NCBI GenBank assembly: GCA_902826615.1
Contig: CADEFN010000004.1
Coordinates: 310,001 to 374,000 of the forward strand
Reading direction: 5' to 3'
Length of the DNA: 64,000 nucleotides
From: an uncultured Gemmatimonadota bacterium
GTDB lineage: Bacteria; Gemmatimonadota; Gemmatimonadetes; Gemmatimonadales; Gemmatimonadaceae
In this document: in pieces, positions 30,036 to 49,450 of the stretch
How positions within the stretch are numbered: position 1 is the stretch's first letter
Layout of the letters: each line of letters begins with the position of its first letter
Made by a program: the position numbers and the translations under genes
Notes under the pieces: generated by a model
Seen by the model: the letters and a program-made list of their open reading frames with translations, nothing else
Databases searched by the model: none
What the model was told of the DNA's origin: nothing

Positions 30036-31010
30036 TCAGATCTCCCAGTTGCTGAAGACCACACCTCGACCTGGTGTCTCTTCGCCGTAGCCTCGCACGG
30101 TCATGCGCAGGTCAGTCCATCTCACCCGTGCGCCCGTCTCGATGAGCTGCCGGTACGTCTCGTCGTACTCCGTTTGCACACGAATGGCGGCCCGGCGTGT
30201 GCCGGCGCGCCGCGCCGCGTCGGAAATGAGGGATGCGATCTGCGGCACCAGCGCGTCATCGCGCAACACCAGCTTGAGCACGCGCATTTCTTCGCGCGAG
30301 CGTCCTTCGACAAGCGCCGTGGCATGAAAGAGGGCAAAACCCGAAAGTCCTGCGCCGTCATACAGCAGCACGATATCCCCCAGCCCGAGCTGGAGCGTGA
30401 GCTCGAGTTCGCGGGTGAAGTCGATGCCCGGCTTGACCAGCTGTGTCAGGTCGCGGCACGCTGCGATGACGTCGGTGCGACCCCGCGCCGGCAGATCGCC
30501 CGCCAGGGCAACCGGGCGGTCGCGCTCTGCGGCCTCCACGGTCACGGTGATGGTGAGGCGGCCAGGCAGAAAGCCTAACGAGGAGTAGAACCCGATGTTG
30601 TCCATCGTCCGCGGCATCGTCTCGAGGCCGACGGTGATCGCCCCGTGTGCACGCAGCCAGGCGATTCCCTCCTTCACAATCGTCTTACCGAGTCCGGTGC
30701 CCTGCCATTCCGGCCGCACGGCCAGCGGACCCATCCACCCTTCGGTGCCCGAGAGGTGCGCGACGTTGAAGGCAATCACCTCACCCCGGTCGTCGCGCCA
30801 CAACATGGCCCCTTCGCGGGCATCTTCGATGGCGTATCGCCAGATGGCCGGGTTGAGCTGAGGTACCCGGACCCCCACCATTCCGTCACGCCGATACCGC
30901 TCGGTGAAGGCGTCGGAAAACACGCGGTTGACGGCGTCGATGTCCGACACACGCATCTGGTGCGGGCCGCTCAGGACGCGAGGTGGACGCCAGGTCTCGG
31001 ACGCCGTCAC
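30036..31010 (-). CDS. GNAT acetyltransferase, tandem-domain
   Basis: 324 residues. The N-terminal GNAT domain (20-155) has the acetyl-CoA loop VRPEWQGTGLGKTIVKEG, fitting Q/R-x-x-G-x-G. The C-terminal half (200-320) has the GNAT strand order (GDIVLLYDGAGLSGFALFHA) but no clean loop and may be a second, degenerate domain. The acceptor is unknown. The start overlaps the stop of the Rad50-like gene by 4 bases, so it is translationally coupled to the DNA-end-processing genes. This may reflect only operon packing. Confidence 0.8.
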   Translation of the reverse strand: MTASETWRPPRVLSGPHQMRVSDIDAVNRVFSDAFTERYRRDGMVGVRVPQLNPAIWRYAIEDAREGAMLWRDDRGEVIAFNVAHLSGTEGWMGPLAVRPEWQGTGLGKTIVKEGIAWLRAHGAITVGLETMPRTMDNIGFYSSLGFLPGRLTITVTVEAAERDRPVALAGDLPARGRTDVIAACRDLTQLVKPGIDFTRELELTLQLGLGDIVLLYDGAGLSGFALFHATALVEGRSREEMRVLKLVLRDDALVPQIASLISDAARRAGTRRAAIRVQTEYDETYRQLIETGARVRWTDLRMTVRGYGEETPGRGVVFSNWEI

Positions 31011-33463
31011 AACCCGGCTCCTTCCAGCTCCGCGCCATCAAAGAGCCCGGGGTCAGGAAAGGCAGGGGTACGCCCCCGAACGACCGATGCCCCGGTGGCG
31101 GCGTCGTAATGCATCACGATCTCGCGGTCCATCAGCTGCCCCAGTGCCTCGATGTGCGTGATGAGGATGACCTGATCAAATCGGTCCTGCAGCCGCTGCA
31201 GGAGACCAACGACACGATGCCGGCGGACCTCGTCGAGTGACCCGAGGATTTCGTCGAGCACCAGGAGCGAGAACTTCTGCCCCGAACGCTCGGCAATCAT
31301 CTGCGACACGGCGAGCCGCAAGGCGAGATTGGCCACATCTTCCTCACCCCCGGAAATCACGGGCTTGGGACGCCCATCCTCCATGACGACGATGTTGTAT
31401 TCGTCATCCAGCTCCATCTCGGTGTAGCGATAGTCGGTGAGCTCGGTAAGGTACACACTCGCCAGCTCCGACAACTCCGGACGCAGGGCATGGTTGAGAT
31501 CGGTACGAAGATCGGTGTAAGCGCGATCGAGTTCGTCATGCAGACGTTTGTCGCGCACCAGCACCCGCTCCGTTTCCTGCGCTTTCTGCAGGTCGCGCAA
31601 GGCGGCATTGGCGCCTTCAGCAGCGCGCTGCGCCGCCTTCAGTTCGGCCGTGGCACCCGCCCGCGCAATCTCGGCGTCCTGCGCAGCACGTGTGGCCGCT
31701 TCCTGCGCCTGCCGCAGCGCAACATAGTCGCCTTCGGAAAAGCGCACCGCCCCGCGCTGCGACTCCAGCTCGGCGATTCTCGCACGCAGCCGCTGCAGCT
31801 GTGCCTGCACCGTCGCCATCTCGCTCTGCAGCTGCTCCTCGCGCTCAAGTTGAGTTGAGAGGCGCGTGACTCGCTCGTTGAGTGGCGCAAGCCGTTCGAT
31901 CTCGGCCTTCACCTCGGCATGACGCGCCGAGTCGTATCCACTCGGCAGGGATGCCAGATCCTGCGTCATTTGTGTGTATCGTTGTTCCTTGACCGCGAGT
32001 TCCCGTTGCAACTGCGCGAGCTCCTGCACCTCGCTGCGCACTCGCGCCAGACGCATCTCCTGCTCACCGGCCTCGCGTTGCTGCTCACGACGTTGTTCCT
32101 CCAGCCGGCCGATCTCGGCGGGGAGTGGTTCCACCTGCGTGAGTTTGTTGGCGAAGTACTTCCCGTCCACGGTCACCGTGTCGATCTGGTCGTCGATCTG
32201 CTCCAGCACGCTGCGCAGGTTTTCGCCAAGCACTCGAGTGCAGGTGGGACAGCGACCATCTTCGCCGAGCTGCACCACTTCCTCGCGTTGCTTCTTGAGC
32301 TCACGCAGCTGGGCGCGCAAGGCATCGCGTTTTGTCTCGGCCTCCTGGCGGTCACGCACCCATCCGGTCCGCAGCAGCTCGATGGCGCCTAACGTGGCCT
32401 CCACTTCGCGACGCCGGGCCTCGAGGGCAATCGTGACTTCCTCCTCGGCCTGTGGCGCCCCCGCAATGCGCGCGCGCCGCTCACGTTTCCCGATCAGCTC
32501 CTCCGCCAGCCCTCGGGCGCTGTCACTCAGTGCCTGACGACGCCCCTCGGCACGCGCCAGTTCCTCGAGCCGGGCGTACTCCGACGCATACTCGGAGAGC
32601 GGGACCAGTTCCTTTGAGAGCTCCGTCAGCTCGATACGCGCCGCACCCGTGGCATCGAGTTCACCGGCCAGCCGGTCGGCGTCGCGCGTGCGAGCCTGCA
32701 GCTCGCTTTCGGCCACCCGCAGCTCCCCCGAGAGCTCATTGTATCGGTCACGGGCCTGCTGCGCCTCGGCCCACCCCGGTGAGATCTCGGCCAGCCGGCT
32801 GGTGGCCTCGGCATGCGCCGACTCCGACGTGGACAGGGCGCGTTCCGCCTCGATGCGCCGTGTGGCGGATTCATTGAGCGCGCGCTGCACTGCGTCCACA
32901 TCGGGCATGGCCGAGCGTACGCCGGAGAGCTCCGCTGTCAGTAGTTTGCGCTGCTCGCGAACGGCTTCCTGCGCCACGCGGAGCTTTTCGTAGCCCAGCA
33001 CCCGGGACAGAAACTGCGCTCGTTCACTCGGCCCCATCGCCGACATGACATTGAGTTCTTTCTGCCCGGTGAAGTAGGTGTGAAAGAACTCGGCACGCGT
33101 CATGCCGAGACGCCGCTGCAGCAGGTCACTGACCGACGACAACGAGTTGGCAATGGGTTCCGAGCCGCCATCGAGATACAGCTCGGCGCTGTTGAGGCCC
33201 CGTGCCACACGATAGCGGTGTCCGCCGAGCTCGAAGTCCAGTTCCACACGCACACTCGCTCGCGGCGCGGCACGCACAAACCGTATCGAATCCTTGGTGC
33301 CACGCGCGGCGGGCTGGCCATACAGCGCCCAGGCAATGGCCTCGAGCACCGTGCTCTTGCCCGCGCCGTTCGGCCCCACGATACCCGTCAGCCCGGTATC
33401 GAACTCCAGAACCGAGTCGGCGTGCTGTCGGAAGTTTGTCAGCGAGAGGGAGTTGAGTCTCAC
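31007..33463 (-). CDS. Rad50/SbcC-family AAA+ SMC-like ATPase
   Basis: 818 residues, shorter than E. coli SbcC and closer to archaeal Rad50. Walker A is GIVGPNGAGKST (28-39). Long coiled coils flank a zinc hook CPTC near residue 404 (DGRCPTCTRVLGEN). The C-terminal half has the ABC signature region VISGGEEDVANLALRLAVSQ and Walker B LLVLDEILGSLDEVRRHRVV. It binds and bridges DNA ends, and ATP drives the nuclease partner. The start overlaps the Mre11-like stop by 4 bases, so the pair is made together. Naming as rad50 or sbcC is equally valid. Confidence 0.93.
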   Translation of the reverse strand: MRLNSLSLTNFRQHADSVLEFDTGLTGIVGPNGAGKSTVLEAIAWALYGQPAARGTKDSIRFVRAAPRASVRVELDFELGGHRYRVARGLNSAELYLDGGSEPIANSLSSVSDLLQRRLGMTRAEFFHTYFTGQKELNVMSAMGPSERAQFLSRVLGYEKLRVAQEAVREQRKLLTAELSGVRSAMPDVDAVQRALNESATRRIEAERALSTSESAHAEATSRLAEISPGWAEAQQARDRYNELSGELRVAESELQARTRDADRLAGELDATGAARIELTELSKELVPLSEYASEYARLEELARAEGRRQALSDSARGLAEELIGKRERRARIAGAPQAEEEVTIALEARRREVEATLGAIELLRTGWVRDRQEAETKRDALRAQLRELKKQREEVVQLGEDGRCPTCTRVLGENLRSVLEQIDDQIDTVTVDGKYFANKLTQVEPLPAEIGRLEEQRREQQREAGEQEMRLARVRSEVQELAQLQRELAVKEQRYTQMTQDLASLPSGYDSARHAEVKAEIERLAPLNERVTRLSTQLEREEQLQSEMATVQAQLQRLRARIAELESQRGAVRFSEGDYVALRQAQEAATRAAQDAEIARAGATAELKAAQRAAEGANAALRDLQKAQETERVLVRDKRLHDELDRAYTDLRTDLNHALRPELSELASVYLTELTDYRYTEMELDDEYNIVVMEDGRPKPVISGGEEDVANLALRLAVSQMIAERSGQKFSLLVLDEILGSLDEVRRHRVVGLLQRLQDRFDQVILITHIEALGQLMDREIVMHYDAATGASVVRGRTPAFPDPGLFDGAELEGAGL

Positions 33464-34674
33464 TCGGCCTCCACCGGTGCCGCAGAAACTCCCGCCGCCA
33501 CCTCACGTGCCTCCGCCTCCCGCAGATACCGCAGCCCCAGATCCACCAGGGCATCGCGCTCGATATCGGGTGTGAGCGGACGGCTCCAGAGTCGCTCCTG
33601 CACCAGGTCGATGAGCGAGGGGCGCCGCCCTCCCGTTCCCGTGAGTGGCAGCGCGCGCAGCAAGTCGGGACGGCGCGTGTCGAGATGAAACTGCAATGCC
33701 GTGTGCCGGTACTCGCGCAACACCTTGTGATCGAGTTCGCGGGCGATGTGCCGCGGAATGTCTCTCACCACCTGCCGAACGATCTTGTCGCGGATCCCAC
33801 CCTTCACCGCTGCCACACTCGCGGCGATAGCGGCATCCACATCACTCGCCGTCATCCCCCGCGCATCAATCGGCCGGAGGTCGATCAGGGGCCGAGCGGC
33901 CGGGATCTTGTGCAGTGTCCGCTTGCGGGTGTCGAGGTTGTACTCCACGAAATACTTGCCGCCCTCGTCGCCACCCAATTTCGCGTCCTTTTCTTCGTGC
34001 TTCTCACCCCAGATGTTGACACTGGTGTACTCCATCGCCCCCGAGTAGCAGGCGTTAGGCGCGAGCTGATGGAACACATGATGATGGCCCAGCGCCACAT
34101 ACGACCATCGCGCGAAGCCGATCTCCTCGGGCGCCAGCTGCAACGCCGCCTGCTCCTCGTAGCCATACTTGTCCGGGAGGCTCCCGGGCATGTTGCCGTG
34201 GGCCACCAGCACGTTGTACCGCGCCGTCTCGTCCGTGTCATACGAGATGTTCAGCCCCGGCGCATCAGGAATGGCAAACACCGACAGCGACCGGTCGGCG
34301 AACGACAGCCGCTGCGGCTCGCTATCCACCACCTGGATGCCTAACGGGATAAAGAGGCGCAGGATACACCCCGTCTCCACGGCACGGGGGGTGTCGTGAT
34401 TCCCTGCGACCATCACGACCAGCGTATCGGGCAGCGTTCGACGCAGCCGGGACAGCTGGTGAAAGGCATGCAAAATCGCCGGGTTGGGCGGCCGAACGCT
34501 GTGAAACACGTCCCCGGCGATCACCACCAGATCGGGGGCCAGCTCGATGATCTTGTCGATGACCTTGGTGAACACGCCAGCAACGTCAGCTTCCCGCTGG
34601 TTGATCCCGGCGGAGGTCTGGCGCTGGAATTGTCGGATCCCGAGGTGCAGGTCTGACAGGTGAATCAGCCGCAT
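33460..34674 (-). CDS. Mre11/SbcD-family DNA repair exonuclease
   Basis: 404 residues. The metallophosphoesterase motifs appear in order: HLSDLHLG (5-12), VVIAGDVFHS (50s), MVAGNHDTP (88-96), LVAHGNM, and ALGHHHVF with the paired His ligands. These bind two manganese ions for 3'-5' exonuclease and endonuclease action at DNA ends. The C-terminal 120 residues form the cap and Rad50-binding region. It is the first gene of the mre11-rad50-GNAT block. A 9-bp repeat array (34694-34779) separates it from the secreted-protein gene upstream. Confidence 0.93.
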   Translation of the reverse strand: MRLIHLSDLHLGIRQFQRQTSAGINQREADVAGVFTKVIDKIIELAPDLVVIAGDVFHSVRPPNPAILHAFHQLSRLRRTLPDTLVVMVAGNHDTPRAVETGCILRLFIPLGIQVVDSEPQRLSFADRSLSVFAIPDAPGLNISYDTDETARYNVLVAHGNMPGSLPDKYGYEEQAALQLAPEEIGFARWSYVALGHHHVFHQLAPNACYSGAMEYTSVNIWGEKHEEKDAKLGGDEGGKYFVEYNLDTRKRTLHKIPAARPLIDLRPIDARGMTASDVDAAIAASVAAVKGGIRDKIVRQVVRDIPRHIARELDHKVLREYRHTALQFHLDTRRPDLLRALPLTGTGGRRPSLIDLVQERLWSRPLTPDIERDALVDLGLRYLREAEAREVAAGVSAAPVEAE

Positions 34675-34693
34675 GCGGGAAAGGTATCAAACA

Positions 34694-34779
34694 GAGGCAC
34701 GGGAAGCACGAGAGGCACGAGAAGCACGGCGCGCCATGGGGAGTCGTGCCTCCCGTGCTTCCCATGCTTCCCATGCTTC
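34694..34779. repeat. Inverted array of 9-bp units (4 + 4)
   Basis: Four tandem units of GARGCACGR fill 34694-34729 (GAGGCACGG, GAAGCACGA, GAGGCACGA, GAAGCACGG). After 14 bases, four complementary units fill 34744-34779 (TCGTGCCTC, CCGTGCTTC, CCATGCTTC twice). Any left unit can pair with any right unit, so the RNA can form a long hairpin in several registers. The array ends one base before the stop codon of the secreted-protein gene (34781) and begins 20 bases before the Mre11-like start, inside a same-strand gene run. Confidence 0.9.
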
Positions 34780-34780
34780 C

Positions 34781-35608
34781 CTAAATGACCCTCATCCACT
34801 GCGTGATCTTCACACGCACCCGTGTTGGACCCGATTCCTTGCCGCTCCCACCACTGATCAGCGACCGCAGGGTGACCACGGAGCGGGCATCGGCAATCCA
34901 CCCGCGCCGCAAGTCGATCAGGATCTTCCCCGTGACGTCCCCCGCCGTTTGCACCACCGAGCGCCGGGAGCCCACCACCTGCCCGGCCCGCACCAGCCGA
35001 CCACGAACCGAGAGGTAGGCATACTCGTCGGAATGCGAGAGCGAGTCGAAACGGAAGGTCGCGTTGAGGGTGGCAGTACCCCGCCCATCAGGTGTCGCGG
35101 CGAGAGGGATTTCGACGGCGCGCACCCATGAGTCACCCGGTGACAGCTTTTCGCGTGGCAAGGTTGCCGGTAGCTGCGAAAAGAGCCCGCTGATCCCCTG
35201 AATCATGGGGTCGGCACCTGTCAGCATCGTTCCGCCATCAGGTTGCACGCGAAAACGGAAGCGTTGCCCCTGCATGGCGCGGGCGGCCCGCAATGACGGC
35301 GAGGCATCCAGCCCTCCGGTGCCGGACACGCGCACCGAATCGGCCAGCGCCAGCACGGTCGCCCCCTCGGCGTCCGCCCCTTCGATAGCGATGCGCGCCA
35401 GCAGCACCAGCGACGCCACATCCCCTCCCTCCGAGTCGTCATCGTTAGGCTTCGACGAGCGGGACATCTCGATCGTCTGGTCCATTCGCACGTGCAGCGT
35501 GTCGCCGGCACGGGGACGCAATCGGAGATGCACCCCAGCCCCCTGCCCACTCAGCGAGGAGGCGCCAACAACCAGGGCCATCACCACCAGACGCGAGCGG
35601 GTGTGCAA
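34781..35608 (-). CDS. Secreted protein of unknown function (DUF6263-like) between HerA and Mre11 genes
   Basis: 275 residues starting with TTG two bases after the HerA stop; an ATG at 35581 is an alternative but cuts the signal peptide. The signal peptide (RLVVMALVVGASSLSG, then Q) shows export. The mature protein opens with HLRLRPRAGDTLHVRMDQ and is beta-rich to the end. This resembles DUF6263, whose members are exported beta proteins of unknown use. An exported protein inside a DNA-repair gene run is odd. Tight spacing to herA suggests cotranscription. Confidence 0.7.
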   Translation of the reverse strand: MHTRSRLVVMALVVGASSLSGQGAGVHLRLRPRAGDTLHVRMDQTIEMSRSSKPNDDDSEGGDVASLVLLARIAIEGADAEGATVLALADSVRVSGTGGLDASPSLRAARAMQGQRFRFRVQPDGGTMLTGADPMIQGISGLFSQLPATLPREKLSPGDSWVRAVEIPLAATPDGRGTATLNATFRFDSLSHSDEYAYLSVRGRLVRAGQVVGSRRSVVQTAGDVTGKILIDLRRGWIADARSVVTLRSLISGGSGKESGPTRVRVKITQWMRVI

Positions 35609-35610
35609 GG

Positions 35611-37578
35611 TCAGCCGCCGTAGGGGTCGTCGGCCGGAGTGGATCGCAAGGGAGCACGCGGTGCCGCCACCGGCTCACGCGCCACGATCTTCCGCCCGAA
35701 CTGATCGAGAAAGAACCCCTTCACCTGCTTGGGACGCGCACGCATGGTGGCATCCCGTGCCTTGAGTACCTCGGCTTCATCGTACAGCGCAAAGACCTGC
35801 TCGATCGCCGCCATGGTCAGCGACGGGTCAAGCTGACGGAGGGACCGCAGAATGGCGTCGGGGAATGGGATGTCCGGCACCGGCGGGAAACGGCGCGATC
35901 CCTCCCGCCCGGTCATGACGGCCGGTCGCGGGAACTTCACGAAGATGGGTTGAGCAAAGTGCGGGTGTCGCACCATCAACTGCCCTTTTTCCAGGGTCGC
36001 CAGCTTGATCTTGATCGCCGGACTGAGCACTGCGTACCCCGGAGTCGCCAGTTCGTCCCCGTCCATGCGGCCGTATACCGCGGTCGCCGAGTTGCCGACA
36101 ACCCGCCGGTGCACCTGCGACCGGAATTGCTGGGCACTGAAGAGGACCAGCCCCAGATATCGGCCCCGTTCGGCGATATCGAGGAGCATTTTCCTGACAT
36201 AGGTCTCGTGCCCGTCCCCCGGCGCGTACTTGTTGAGCTCATCGACAAATACCACCACGTGGTCAACACCAAGACTTCGCCGTTCGAGATGCTCGCGCAG
36301 TTTTGAAACGACACGGGCAAACACCAGGTCCTGGGCGTCGTCCTCGAGATTGGCCACGTCCACCACGTACACGGACCGGTCCTGGAAGCTGCCAAATGGC
36401 AGATCACTGGCGCCCCCGTCGTTGGTGACCAACCCCTGACAGCGGGTGGCGATATTCACCAGGCGGTTGCGCACCTTGCGCATGGTCGCGATGTGATGGG
36501 TGCGCCATGACTCGTGGTTGCGCGATTCCATGGCCGCGATCACGTCCTTGAACCAGCGATCGAGGTCCCCGAAACTCTTCACGTTGTACTGCTGCGTGCC
36601 GAGGGCATCGTCCTGGAACTGCATGCCCACCACCCGCATGGAGATGAAGTCGATCAGGGCATCGGCCTTGGCATCGACGTCATCCTTGTTGAGCAGCACT
36701 TCCGCGTACTGCAGTACTTCGTTGAGGCCCCAGGTCAGTGCCGAGACGTTGTGCTGCAGATCGGGATGCGAACGCAGGGTGTTGAGCGAAGCACCCGTCG
36801 CGGTGTAGGGCGCGAAGTAGTGCACCCGTTCGAATGGCGCAGCCGGCACGCCCATCCGGTCGTAGAGCCGCCGGTCCTCGTCGGACAGCGTGGCAGGCTG
36901 GTCGAGATAGCAGAGGTCGGGTCCCTTCACGTTGAAGCAGACCGCCGCCACCGTGCCACGCGACTCGGGAAAATGCGCAAAAATCGACGACAGGAGCCAT
37001 TCCACCGCCGACGTCTTGGTAGCAAGCCCGGACACACCGGTGATGTTGAGATGCGCTGCCTCAGGGCCCAGAAGAAAGTCGGAGTCCAGGTAGACGGGTG
37101 ACTCCATCCCGCCACCGCGGTACACCCCGACAGGAATTCCCGTGTTGGTACCCGCCGCGAGATACACATCCATCCGTAGCGCGATCTCCACGTCGGCGTC
37201 GTCGGCGAGATACACCGCACCCATGGGCACCGGCTGCAGCGGCTCGTCAGGCACCTGCCGCAGTACCGCCGCCGTATACAGCCGGATCTCGGCGCGTTGT
37301 GTCGGGGCCTGCGCCGCGCGCTCGGGATCGCTGTCGTGGCCGAGCACATCGTGCAACGGTGAGATGAGATCGGAGTAACTCTCGCCTTCGGTCACCACAC
37401 CGTAGATGCGCGGAATCACACCCTGCTGCGGGTCACGCCCTTCCACCCGCACGATCGTCCCGATCCCCACCGGAGAGTCGAGCGAGGTCCAGAAGTGGAA
37501 CTGATGCGGCGTGTTAGGGCGCTTTTCGGTGGCGACCACACGACCCAGGAGCGACGCGGGTGACGGATGCGGATTCAA
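35611..37578 (-). CDS. herA: HerA-family DNA translocase ATPase
   Basis: 655 residues. The N-terminal HAS-barrel-like region starts LLGRVVATEKRPNTPHQFHF. The P-loop position reads ITGVSGLATKTSAVEWLL (179-196), a variant in which the usual GSGKT is GLATKT; the Lys-Thr pair is kept. Walker B is HVVVFVDELNKYAP (Asp446, Glu447). The region GLVLFSAQQFRSQVHRRVVG matches the sensor and arginine-finger segment of FtsK/HerA ATPases. HerA forms hexameric rings that pump DNA and activate NurA. The stop-start overlap with the NurA-like gene is 4 bases, the usual archaeal pairing. Confidence 0.85.
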   Translation of the reverse strand: MNPHPSPASLLGRVVATEKRPNTPHQFHFWTSLDSPVGIGTIVRVEGRDPQQGVIPRIYGVVTEGESYSDLISPLHDVLGHDSDPERAAQAPTQRAEIRLYTAAVLRQVPDEPLQPVPMGAVYLADDADVEIALRMDVYLAAGTNTGIPVGVYRGGGMESPVYLDSDFLLGPEAAHLNITGVSGLATKTSAVEWLLSSIFAHFPESRGTVAAVCFNVKGPDLCYLDQPATLSDEDRRLYDRMGVPAAPFERVHYFAPYTATGASLNTLRSHPDLQHNVSALTWGLNEVLQYAEVLLNKDDVDAKADALIDFISMRVVGMQFQDDALGTQQYNVKSFGDLDRWFKDVIAAMESRNHESWRTHHIATMRKVRNRLVNIATRCQGLVTNDGGASDLPFGSFQDRSVYVVDVANLEDDAQDLVFARVVSKLREHLERRSLGVDHVVVFVDELNKYAPGDGHETYVRKMLLDIAERGRYLGLVLFSAQQFRSQVHRRVVGNSATAVYGRMDGDELATPGYAVLSPAIKIKLATLEKGQLMVRHPHFAQPIFVKFPRPAVMTGREGSRRFPPVPDIPFPDAILRSLRQLDPSLTMAAIEQVFALYDEAEVLKARDATMRARPKQVKGFFLDQFGRKIVAREPVAAPRAPLRSTPADDPYGG

Positions 37579-38546
37579 CTTCTCAAGACCTCCTCACAGT
37601 TGCGAATGCCATATGCCATGGTGTCCCAGCGGCCGTCGGGCAGAGCGAGAGGCGAACGCTCCGCCATCACCCATCCCGACCAGGTGTCGGCCAGATCGCC
37701 CCCACCCTGCTGCGCGATTAGGAGCGGGAGCTCCAGGCGCACCAGCCCCCAGAACGGCCCATGCCCGCGCGGATCGCGAAGCCGAAGGTACCAGCTCGCC
37801 ACCGGATCGCGATGCCGGCTTTCGATGGCAAACATCGACGACCGTTCCCCTTCTTTCAGATCGAGGACGAGTGTGAGCGCGGCTCCCGTGGCATACACCG
37901 TCTGGTGGCTCTTGATCACACCCACCACACGCTCGGACTCATGCACACTCTTCGCACGCGGCAGGGGGCCATCGAGGTACAATGTACCAGCCTGCCGGGC
38001 GCAGAACTGCTCGGCGAGTGAATTCTCCAGGAGTTCCCGGTCCTGCTTCACGGCGTTTGTCGCGGCCTGCAGCTGGCGAAAAGGATGTTCTCCCGTGCCA
38101 TCTGCGGTTTCCTCGTCCATCACCTCTCGGGTGCTCAGACCGAACTCCTGGAACAAGGCCTGATCGCGCTGTGTCATTCGCGACCAGGGCGCGTACACCG
38201 CTTCCCGGCGGAGCGGCGCCGCTCCCCAGGTGTAGAGACGCCGCTCGCGTCGTTCACGAATGACCGCGGCCACCCGACCCCACACCAGCGGCGTCACGCC
38301 CATCCAGGCGATTTCCCGGCTTTCCTGCACGCCGTCGAGGAAAGCCGTCACTGACGCGGGTGCGTCAGCAGGTACAGGCCACACGCGCATCGCGTCCCCT
38401 TCGAGTAAACGAGCCCTCGCACTTTCCGGACGTTCTATCCGGTTGAGCATGACCTCCAGCGAGGCACCTGCCGGATCGGCGCGACGCAACCCCGCCACGC
38501 GCGACTCCAGCTCGGAGAGCGCGCGCAGAACCGCCGTTGTCAACAT
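37575..38546 (-). CDS. nurA: NurA-domain nuclease
   Basis: 323 residues. The RNase H-like NurA core shows ASVTAFLDGVQESREIAW with the first acidic residue at Asp71, then AGTLYLDGPLP near residue 194, VVGVIKSHQTVYATG around 212, and SWYLRLRDPRGHGPFWGLVR, where NurA proteins keep a late acidic/His region. NurA is a manganese-dependent nuclease that resects 5' strands when bound to HerA. The gene precedes and overlaps herA. A family paralogue with another partner is possible, but the genomic pairing supports the name. Confidence 0.75.
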   Translation of the reverse strand: MLTTAVLRALSELESRVAGLRRADPAGASLEVMLNRIERPESARARLLEGDAMRVWPVPADAPASVTAFLDGVQESREIAWMGVTPLVWGRVAAVIRERRERRLYTWGAAPLRREAVYAPWSRMTQRDQALFQEFGLSTREVMDEETADGTGEHPFRQLQAATNAVKQDRELLENSLAEQFCARQAGTLYLDGPLPRAKSVHESERVVGVIKSHQTVYATGAALTLVLDLKEGERSSMFAIESRHRDPVASWYLRLRDPRGHGPFWGLVRLELPLLIAQQGGGDLADTWSGWVMAERSPLALPDGRWDTMAYGIRNCEEVLRS

Positions 38547-38585: not shown

Positions 38586-38622
38586 TCGTGCTTCCCATGC
38601 TTCCTCGTGCTTCCCGTGCTTC
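38586..38622. repeat. Half array of the 9-bp unit
   Basis: Four units in a single orientation: TCGTGCTTC, CCATGCTTC, then one extra C, TCGTGCTTC and CCGTGCTTC. No complementary arm is present within the 82-base gap between nurA and the RAM-domain gene. It is therefore a one-armed version of the inverted arrays at 34.7, 42.8 and 49.4 kb. Confidence 0.8.
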
Positions 38623-38627
38623 TGCAG

Positions 38628-38912
38628 TTACGCCCCAATGTCCCACGCCTGTTCGAGATCCTTGCGCGAGTACGCACGAAAGGCGGTGAGGGTCTGCGTG
38701 CGCACAATGCCCGTGACGGCCGGGAACCGCTCGGTCACCACTTCGGCGATCTGCATGTACTCCTTCACCCGGACGATCGCGACCAGGTCCCACTCCCCCG
38801 ACACCGAGTACACCTCCTGCACACCCTCGATCCCGGCAATTTCACGCGCTGTATCCGGGATCCGTTTGGGGTCAGCCTTGATCAGGACAATCGTCGTGAT
38901 GCTTTCGGACAT
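38628..38912 (-). CDS. Stand-alone Lrp/AsnC ligand-binding (RAM) domain protein
   Basis: 94 residues, the length of a lone RAM domain. There is no helix-turn-helix. The core SESITTIVLIKADPKRIPD, GVQEVYSVSGEWDLVAIVRV and GIVRTQTLTAFRAYS follows the Lrp/AsnC effector domain, which binds amino acids and assembles dimers to octamers. Lone RAM proteins may sense amino acids or modulate full-length Lrp proteins. It starts 3 bases after the stop of the aminotransferase gene, an amino-acid metabolism neighbour, which suggests a shared transcript. Confidence 0.85.
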   Translation of the reverse strand: MSESITTIVLIKADPKRIPDTAREIAGIEGVQEVYSVSGEWDLVAIVRVKEYMQIAEVVTERFPAVTGIVRTQTLTAFRAYSRKDLEQAWDIGA

Positions 38913-42764: not shown

Positions 42765-42872
42765 GAGGCACGGGAGGCACGGGAAGCACGAGAGGCACGG
42801 GCTATTCGCTCGTGCCTCTCGTACTTCTCGTGCTTCTCGTACTTCTCGTGCTTCTCGTACTTCTCGTGCTTC
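42765..42872. repeat. Inverted array of 9-bp units (4 + 7)
   Basis: Four left units at 42765-42800 (GAGGCACGG twice, GAAGCACGA, GAGGCACGG), a 9-base loop, then seven right units at 42810-42872 alternating TCGTGCTTC and TCGTACTTC after a first TCGTGCCTC. It starts directly after the tdk stop and ends 4 bases before the PilX-like stop (42877). It fills a convergent gap, where a bidirectional hairpin could act as a terminator. The right arm has expanded relative to the left, with a 18-bp higher-order period. Confidence 0.92.
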
Positions 42873-49353: not shown

Positions 49354-49450
49354 GAAGCACGGGAGGCACGGGAAGCATGAGAAGTACGGGAGTGGTTCGT
49401 GCCTCCCGTGCCTCCCGTGCTTCCCGTGCTTCCCGTGCCTCCCGTACCTC
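49354..49450. repeat. Inverted array of 9-bp units (4 + 6)
   Basis: Left arm 49354-49389 holds GAAGCACGG, GAGGCACGG, GAAGCATGA and GAAGTACGG. After a 7-base loop, right arm 49397-49450 holds TCGTGCCTC, CCGTGCCTC, CCGTGCTTC twice, CCGTGCCTC and CCGTACCTC. It starts 4 bases after the gcvH stop and its last unit touches the gcvP stop at 49451. It fills the convergent gap and could form a long hairpin on either transcript. Confidence 0.92.

What the first reader, a model, noticed from the sequence alone, without database searches (positions are those of the whole stretch)
30036..38546. HerA-NurA and Mre11-Rad50 in one gene run, as in archaea
On the minus strand nurA-herA overlap by 4 bases, then a secreted-protein gene, a repeat array, and mre11-rad50-GNAT with 4-base overlaps. 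In thermophilic archaea these four genes form a conserved DNA end-resection operon. In most bacteria the pairs are apart or one is absent. RecBCD/AddAB-type genes are not seen here. This lineage may resect double-strand breaks in the archaeal way.
Basis: partly seen in the sequence, partly recalled or inferred. Interest (0 to 1): 0.6.

Follow-up and report, generated by a model that had tools for sequence, protein, structure and literature searches.

The report
Bacterial four-gene DNA break-end operon
A bacterium of the phylum Gemmatimonadota keeps, in one run of genes, the four proteins that heat-loving archaea are thought to use to trim broken DNA ends; the set belongs to a divergent bacterial branch of the family, is part of the normal gene set of its order, and its nurA and herA genes are lost together.

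Summary
The gene run is real. On the minus strand lie nurA (37575-38546), herA (35611-37578), a secreted DUF6263-like gene, a repeat array, mre11, rad50 and a GNAT gene, with the stated 4-base overlaps. NurA scores below Pfam's cut-off, but a profile and an AlphaFold model match D. radiodurans, Thermotoga and Sulfolobus NurA. The genome (Gemmatimonadota, 99% complete) has no RecC and no PDDEXK_1 nuclease, hence no RecBCD or AddAB. It does have RecJ, RecQ, RecN and Ku-LigD.

HerA is not archaeal. It is a deep Gemmatimonadota clade of the bacterial (Deinococcus-type) HerA family. The run is conserved: mre11 lies downstream of herA on the same strand in 118/118 genomes with both on one contig. 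In the family, herA and nurA co-occur perfectly (86 both, 17 neither), while mre11 stays in 102/103. Genomes without herA-nurA carry RecC more often (12/17 vs 19/86); corrected for phylogeny this is only suggestive.

Distant herA-mre11-rad50-nurA clusters recur in other bacterial phyla and on plasmids, so the arrangement is not peculiar to archaea and this lineage. Most likely function: Mre11-Rad50 opens broken ends and the HerA-NurA motor-nuclease resects them, in parallel with RecJ-RecQ. A new member of a known kind.

The parts
37575..38546 (-). nurA: RNase H-fold nuclease, NurA family (323 aa)
   Evidence: A1 profile to drNurA 7f6d 1.5e-5; AF2 pLDDT 87, Foldseek 7f6d 1.7e-12, 1zup 4.9e-12, 2ygk 1.3e-6; motifs FLDG69-72, LDG191-193, KSH212-214
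35611..37578 (-). herA: hexameric HerA/FtsK-type DNA translocase (655 aa, TTG start)
   Evidence: phmmer 7f6d_B 3e-43; profile 4e-59 and 5e-172; Walker A GVSGLATKTS 181, Walker B VDELNKY
34781..35608 (-). DUF6263-like gene with a signal-peptide-like N-terminus, function unknown; a DUF6263-type gene at this spot is present in some relatives and absent in others
   Evidence: PF19777 E 6e-5, below cut-off; found in 7 of 20 related loci; herA-mre11 gap is bimodal
34693..34781 (.). intergenic palindromic array of 9-bp repeats; predicted RNA hairpin
   Evidence: TRF; fold z -7.7; sister genome G029 has mre11 and DUF6263 about 12 bp apart, without it
33460..34674 (-). mre11: calcineurin-like nuclease (404 aa)
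   Evidence: PF00149, TIGR00619 just below cut-off; best PDB match M. jannaschii Mre11 1.6e-25; SDLH, AGD, GNHD, AHG, GHHH motifs
31007..33463 (-). rad50: SMC-like ATPase with CPTC zinc hook (818 aa, short coil)
   Evidence: NF003034 archaeal Rad50 1e-54 against SbcC TIGR00618 9e-29, both below their cut-offs; Walker A, CPTC 405, SGGE, LDE
30036..31010 (-). GNAT acetyltransferase (324 aa), conserved next to rad50
   Evidence: PF00583; next to rad50 in most related loci
38628..38912 (-). Lrp/AsnC ligand-binding domain protein upstream; syntenic flank
   Evidence: PF01037; conserved position

Best explanation
This is a chromosomal break-end processing operon of the Gemmatimonadota order to which the genome belongs. 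Inferred mechanism: the Mre11-Rad50 clamp recognises a double-strand end and nicks or clears it; a HerA hexamer threads the duplex and feeds it to a NurA dimer, which degrades the 5' strand and leaves a 3' tail for RecA. It stands in for RecBCD/AddAB, which this genome lacks, and works beside RecJ-RecQ. HerA-NurA is one inseparable unit, and Mre11-Rad50 is a second unit that is kept when the first is lost. Shown here: the genes, their motifs and folds, operon conservation, exact co-presence of herA and nurA in the family, and absence of RecBCD/AddAB. Inferred: physical complex, polarity, and role in repair.
For: Family identity and intact motifs. mre11 downstream of herA on the same strand in 118/118 pairs on one contig, 105 within 1.3 kb. 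In family f1, HerA+NurA+ 86, HerA-NurA- 17, no mixed case, while mre11 is in 102/103. At 15 herA-less loci examined the flanking genes, with mre11 and in most also rad50 and GNAT, remain. No RecC and no PDDEXK_1 nuclease in G000. HerA-lacking genomes carry RecC in 12/17 against 19/86 (Fisher 2e-4); 4 of 8 inferred losses fall on RecC branches that make up 19% of the HerA-bearing tree (P 0.045). Published: drNurA-HerA resects the 5' strand in vitro (PMC9960219); T. thermophilus hepA (herA) mutants are UV-sensitive (PMC5448004).
Against: RecJ and RecQ are present in all 8 genomes tested. D. radiodurans nurA/herA deletions improve tolerance of mitomycin C and UV (PMC9960219). The T. kodakarensis enzyme degrades both strands and an antiviral role was proposed (PMC12977600). 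The link between HerA loss and RecC is not significant by independent pairs, and 19 family genomes keep both. The first motif Asp of NurA (D71) is N or G in two f2 orthologues.
Confidence: 0.6

Rival explanations
1. RecJ-RecQ with RecFOR does the bulk of resection, as reported for D. radiodurans, and HerA-NurA is an accessory or competing end-degrading nuclease.
For: RecJ 6.6e-153 and RecQ 3.5e-136 in G000. Published D. radiodurans phenotype. HerA-NurA has been lost 8-9 times, some of them without RecBCD/AddAB detected.
Against: The operon is near-universal in the two sampled families of the order (149 of 167 genomes have HerA) and in strict gene order, which is much for a dispensable accessory.
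Confidence: 0.25
2. The operon is an anti-phage or anti-plasmid nuclease system acting on free linear DNA ends.
For: The distant version of the cluster is patchy, spread over many phyla and found on plasmids, one copy beside DUF2397/TIGR02678/TIGR02680 genes of the Wadjet type. HerA pairs with other nucleases in defence (PMC12977600). PADLOC gives weak MADS-type hits only.
Against: The window's version is chromosomal, confined to one HerA clade that follows the families, with constant housekeeping neighbours (aminotransferase, AsnC, PTPS, FolE), unlike a mobile defence island.
Confidence: 0.13
3. The operon was recently taken from thermophilic archaea.
For: Same four genes as in thermophilic archaea. 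Mre11 and Rad50 resemble M. jannaschii and Pyrococcus proteins more than E. coli SbcCD.
Against: HerA matches drHerA at 5e-172 and the best archaeal-type chain only at 0.14. It forms a deep clade that follows the Gemmatimonadota families, at 57-85% identity within the order.
Confidence: 0.02

Closest known systems
Archaeal nurA-rad50-mre11-herA operon (Constantinesco 2004; Sulfolobus, Pyrococcus)
   Same: The same four families in one run; same inferred division of labour
   Different: HerA shows no significant profile match to archaeal HerA; NurA reaches Sso NurA only by fold; bacterial RecJ/RecQ background; extra DUF6263 and GNAT genes
Deinococcus radiodurans NurA-HerA (7f6d; PMC9960219)
   Same: Best match for both HerA and NurA; host lacks RecBCD/AddAB and has RecJ-RecQ
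   Different: HerA on a very long branch apart; here mre11-rad50 is in the same run, whereas D. radiodurans was described as lacking Mre11-Rad50 (PMC12977600)
Oceanithermus profundus nurA-hepA-sbcD-sbcC (PMC5448004)
   Same: A bacterial precedent for the four-gene run, with sbcD-sbcC downstream of hepA (herA)
   Different: One thermophile; here a core operon conserved across an order of another phylum
Distant herA-mre11-rad50-nurA clusters of Actinomycetota, Chloroflexota, Acidobacteriota, plasmids and other Gemmatimonadota (this work)
   Same: The same four families, usually adjacent
   Different: HerA about 30% identical; patchy, partly plasmid-borne; mostly nurA last instead of first

Membership tests
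NurA nuclease family | NurA profile match | tested here: inconclusive
   PF09376 16.2 bits, below the 21-bit cut-off; family profile to drNurA 1.5e-5
NurA nuclease family | RNase H-like NurA fold | tested here: met
   AF2 pLDDT 87; Foldseek hits at E<=0.001 are NurA structures only
NurA nuclease family | Conserved catalytic acidic residues | tested here: inconclusive
   D71 and D192 present in the window; D192 invariant, D71 not in two f2 members; mapping onto known catalytic residues not done
NurA nuclease family | Mn-dependent 5'-3' nuclease in complex with HerA | not testable with these tools
   needs biochemistry
HerA (bacterial Deinococcus type) | Full-length profile similarity, Walker A/B intact | tested here: met
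   A5 profile 5e-172 over drHerA 10-604; K188, D446-E447 invariant
HerA (archaeal type) | Closer to archaeal than to bacterial HerA | tested here: not met
   NCBIfam HerA_Thermprot 18 bits against an 800-bit cut-off; best archaeal-type PDB chain E 0.14
Mre11-Rad50 | Phosphoesterase motifs; ABC ATPase with CxxC hook | tested here: met
Archaeal-type four-gene resection operon | All four genes co-directional and adjacent, conserved | tested here: met
Archaeal-type four-gene resection operon | Host lacks RecBCD/AddAB | tested here: met
   G000; not a rule in relatives
Archaeal-type four-gene resection operon | Joint function in end resection | not testable with these tools
   needs mutants or purified proteins

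The most novel reading that the evidence does not exclude
In Gemmatimonadota an archaeal-style Mre11-Rad50/HerA-NurA machine is the ancestral chromosomal resection system, and HerA-NurA is discarded as a unit when RecBCD arrives. That would make RecBCD and HerA-NurA true functional substitutes and bear directly on whether HerA-NurA resects breaks in vivo.
Probability: 0.35. Interest if true: 0.7.

Novelty: new member of a known kind. Interest (0 to 1): 0.45.

Why it matters
A 2023 structural paper says bacterial NurA-HerA occurs in only a few bacteria, such as Deinococcus-Thermus (PMC9960219), and a 2026 paper doubts that HerA-NurA resects breaks at all (PMC12977600). Here a divergent version, missed by standard profiles, is core to an order of Gemmatimonadota, in one operon with mre11-rad50. 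It is lost cleanly several times, often where RecBCD is present. That natural series of losses makes the resection-or-defence question directly testable in bacteria.

Tried and rejected
Archaeal origin of HerA: rejected by profiles; the tree places it as a deep Gemmatimonadota clade. The 969-aa UvrD-like gene on contig C8 as a RecB/AddA: rejected; it is a UvrD helicase with a DnaQ-type exonuclease insert near Ku and LigD. The C12 UvrD-like gene: Gabija-like pair with an OLD-TOPRIM ATPase. General mutual exclusion of HerA and AddAB: rejected; strong PDDEXK_1 hits occur at similar rates in HerA+ and HerA- members of the family (11/86 and 3/17), and f5-f7 genomes have both a distant HerA and AddAB-type genes. 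Independent-pairs test of HerA loss against RecC: uninformative. A tree with archaeal HerA could not be built because no archaeal locus was obtained; plasmid searches gave none for HerA. The placement of drHerA in the HerA tree is unsure (long-branch warning). No held paper links Gemmatimonadota to HerA-NurA; the 2004 founding papers are not held. The structure job for the DUF6263-like protein had not finished.

Full report
What is there. The window is G000:C4:310001-374000 of a 5.9 Mb, 98-contig genome that is 99% complete. Its phylum is Gemmatimonadota: a genome of the same class (G017) is about 83-90% identical in DNA over roughly 15 kb to a public record of that name. A palindromic 9-bp repeat array fills the 106 bp between the DUF6263-like gene and mre11. 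The sister genome G029 has only about 12 bp there, so the array looks like an insertion into an older operon.

Identity of the proteins. Mre11 and Rad50 are found by Pfam and NCBIfam and keep their motifs, including the CPTC zinc hook. Their closest solved relatives are M. jannaschii and Pyrococcus Mre11/Rad50, ahead of E. coli SbcCD; this is similarity, not a tree. HerA itself has no Pfam hit but matches D. radiodurans HerA. A profile that also holds distant Gemmatimonadota HerA matches drHerA end to end at 5e-172, while the best archaeal-type chain reaches only 0.14. NurA is below Pfam's cut-off. Its family profile hits drNurA (1.5e-5) and Thermotoga TM1739 (0.0034). The AF2 model (pLDDT 87) finds only NurA structures at E<=0.001: D. 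radiodurans, Thermotoga and Sulfolobus.

Conservation. HerA was searched in 297 genomes of the phylum: 187 matched; Mre11 matched in 263 and NurA in 170. Where herA and mre11 lie on one contig, mre11 is always downstream on the same strand (118/118), within 1.3 kb in 105 (only listed matches could be used, which favours closer relatives). The gap is bimodal, under 200 bp or 0.5-1.3 kb, because some genomes have a DUF6263-type gene in between and others do not. The flanks (aminotransferase, AsnC, PTPS, FolE) are largely constant within the family.

Co-loss. In family f1, HerA and NurA are both present in 86 genomes and both absent in 17, with no mixed case. Mre11 is present in 102 of these 103. 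At 15 herA-less loci examined, the neighbouring genes and mre11 remain, in most with rad50 and GNAT. On an Mre11-Rad50 tree this takes 8-9 losses. So herA-nurA is one unit and mre11-rad50 another. In f2, 55 of 63 HerA genomes have a detectable NurA; eight do not, by loss or divergence. In f9, NurA is present but unlinked.

Other resection systems. G000 has no PDDEXK_1 nuclease and no RecC, so no AddAB or RecBCD was found. Its UvrD-family hits are two proteins judged by size to be UvrD/PcrA helicases (C3 and C4, open frames of 777 and 801 aa), a UvrD-exonuclease fusion near Ku and LigD, and a Gabija-like pair. RecJ, RecN and RecQ are present. Relatives differ: G039 has HerA-NurA plus a complete recC-recB-recD, and G019 has RecBCD but no HerA-NurA. 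In f1, RecC is in 12/17 HerA-less and 19/86 HerA-bearing genomes (p 2e-4, ignoring phylogeny). By branch length, 4 of 8 losses fall on the 19% of the tree that has RecC (P 0.045); the independent-pairs test has no power. I treat functional substitution as suggested, not shown.

Wider distribution. One scan of 84,980 species genomes, seeded with a distant HerA from another family of the class, gave at least 518 relatives; the best 80 were kept. Of these, 56 have all four genes within the fetched stretch and 14 more have HerA, Mre11 and Rad50 (after setting aside the ten loci of this phylum that I added). They are labelled Actinomycetota (Micromonospora, Glycomyces, Acidimicrobiia), Chloroflexota, Acidobacteriota, Pseudomonadota, Bacteroidota and Bacillota (many are MAGs, so single labels may be wrong). 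Such clusters are also on plasmids of Sphaerospermopsis, Streptomyces (beside Wadjet-type genes) and Chlorohelix. In the HerA tree the window's type is a separate Gemmatimonadota clade on a long branch (the placement of drHerA is unsure). Thus the four-gene run is a recurrent bacterial arrangement, with at least one core and one apparently mobile form. Oceanithermus profundus was the only bacterial precedent I found in the held papers (PMC5448004).

Mechanism. Shown: genes, motifs, folds, operon conservation, exact herA/nurA co-presence in the family, absence of RecBCD/AddAB in this genome. From published work: drHerA-NurA forms a motor-nuclease that can resect 5' ends (PMC9960219), with mixed phenotypes in Deinococcus and UV sensitivity of the Thermus mutant. 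Inferred: that the Gemmatimonadota proteins do the same, are handed ends by Mre11-Rad50, and share the work with RecJ-RecQ. The defence rival is more plausible for the plasmid-borne form than for this chromosomal one.

Verdict. The 'archaeal way' is right as a functional parallel, wrong as ancestry for HerA, and not exclusive.

Noticed in passing
34693-34781, 38587-38622, 42765-42872, 49358-49450: Intergenic palindromic arrays of a 9-bp unit (CGTGCTTCC type): 18 matches of a 22-mer against 0.02 expected; the first folds into a strong hairpin (z -7.7).
   Followed up: partly
L097 (G000:C8:219000-233000): Ku and LigD, with a 969-aa UvrD helicase carrying an inserted DnaQ-type exonuclease domain nearby; UvrD-family ORFs of about 960-990 aa occur in several relatives.
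   Followed up: partly
L098 (G000:C12:57000-69000): Gabija-like pair: OLD-TOPRIM ATPase (593 aa) and UvrD helicase (636 aa), next to a restriction-type gene.
   Followed up: partly
34781-35608: DUF6263-like secreted protein in the middle of a DNA-repair run; kept next to mre11 in several genomes that lost herA-nurA.
   Followed up: partly
L289, L290, L291: Plasmid-borne herA-sbcD-sbcC clusters annotated only as hypothetical or ATP-binding proteins, with an adjacent hypothetical gene of NurA size; one lies beside DUF2397/TIGR02678/TIGR02680 (Wadjet-type) genes.
   Followed up: partly
L048, L050 (family f9): herA stands next to a carB-like gene, without nurA, mre11 or rad50 nearby; nurA is elsewhere in the genome.
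   Followed up: no
L031:10630-15490, L032:6729-9103, L042:5242-8562: Inserts of 2.4-4.9 kb between nurA and herA in relatives, including the sister genome.
   Followed up: no
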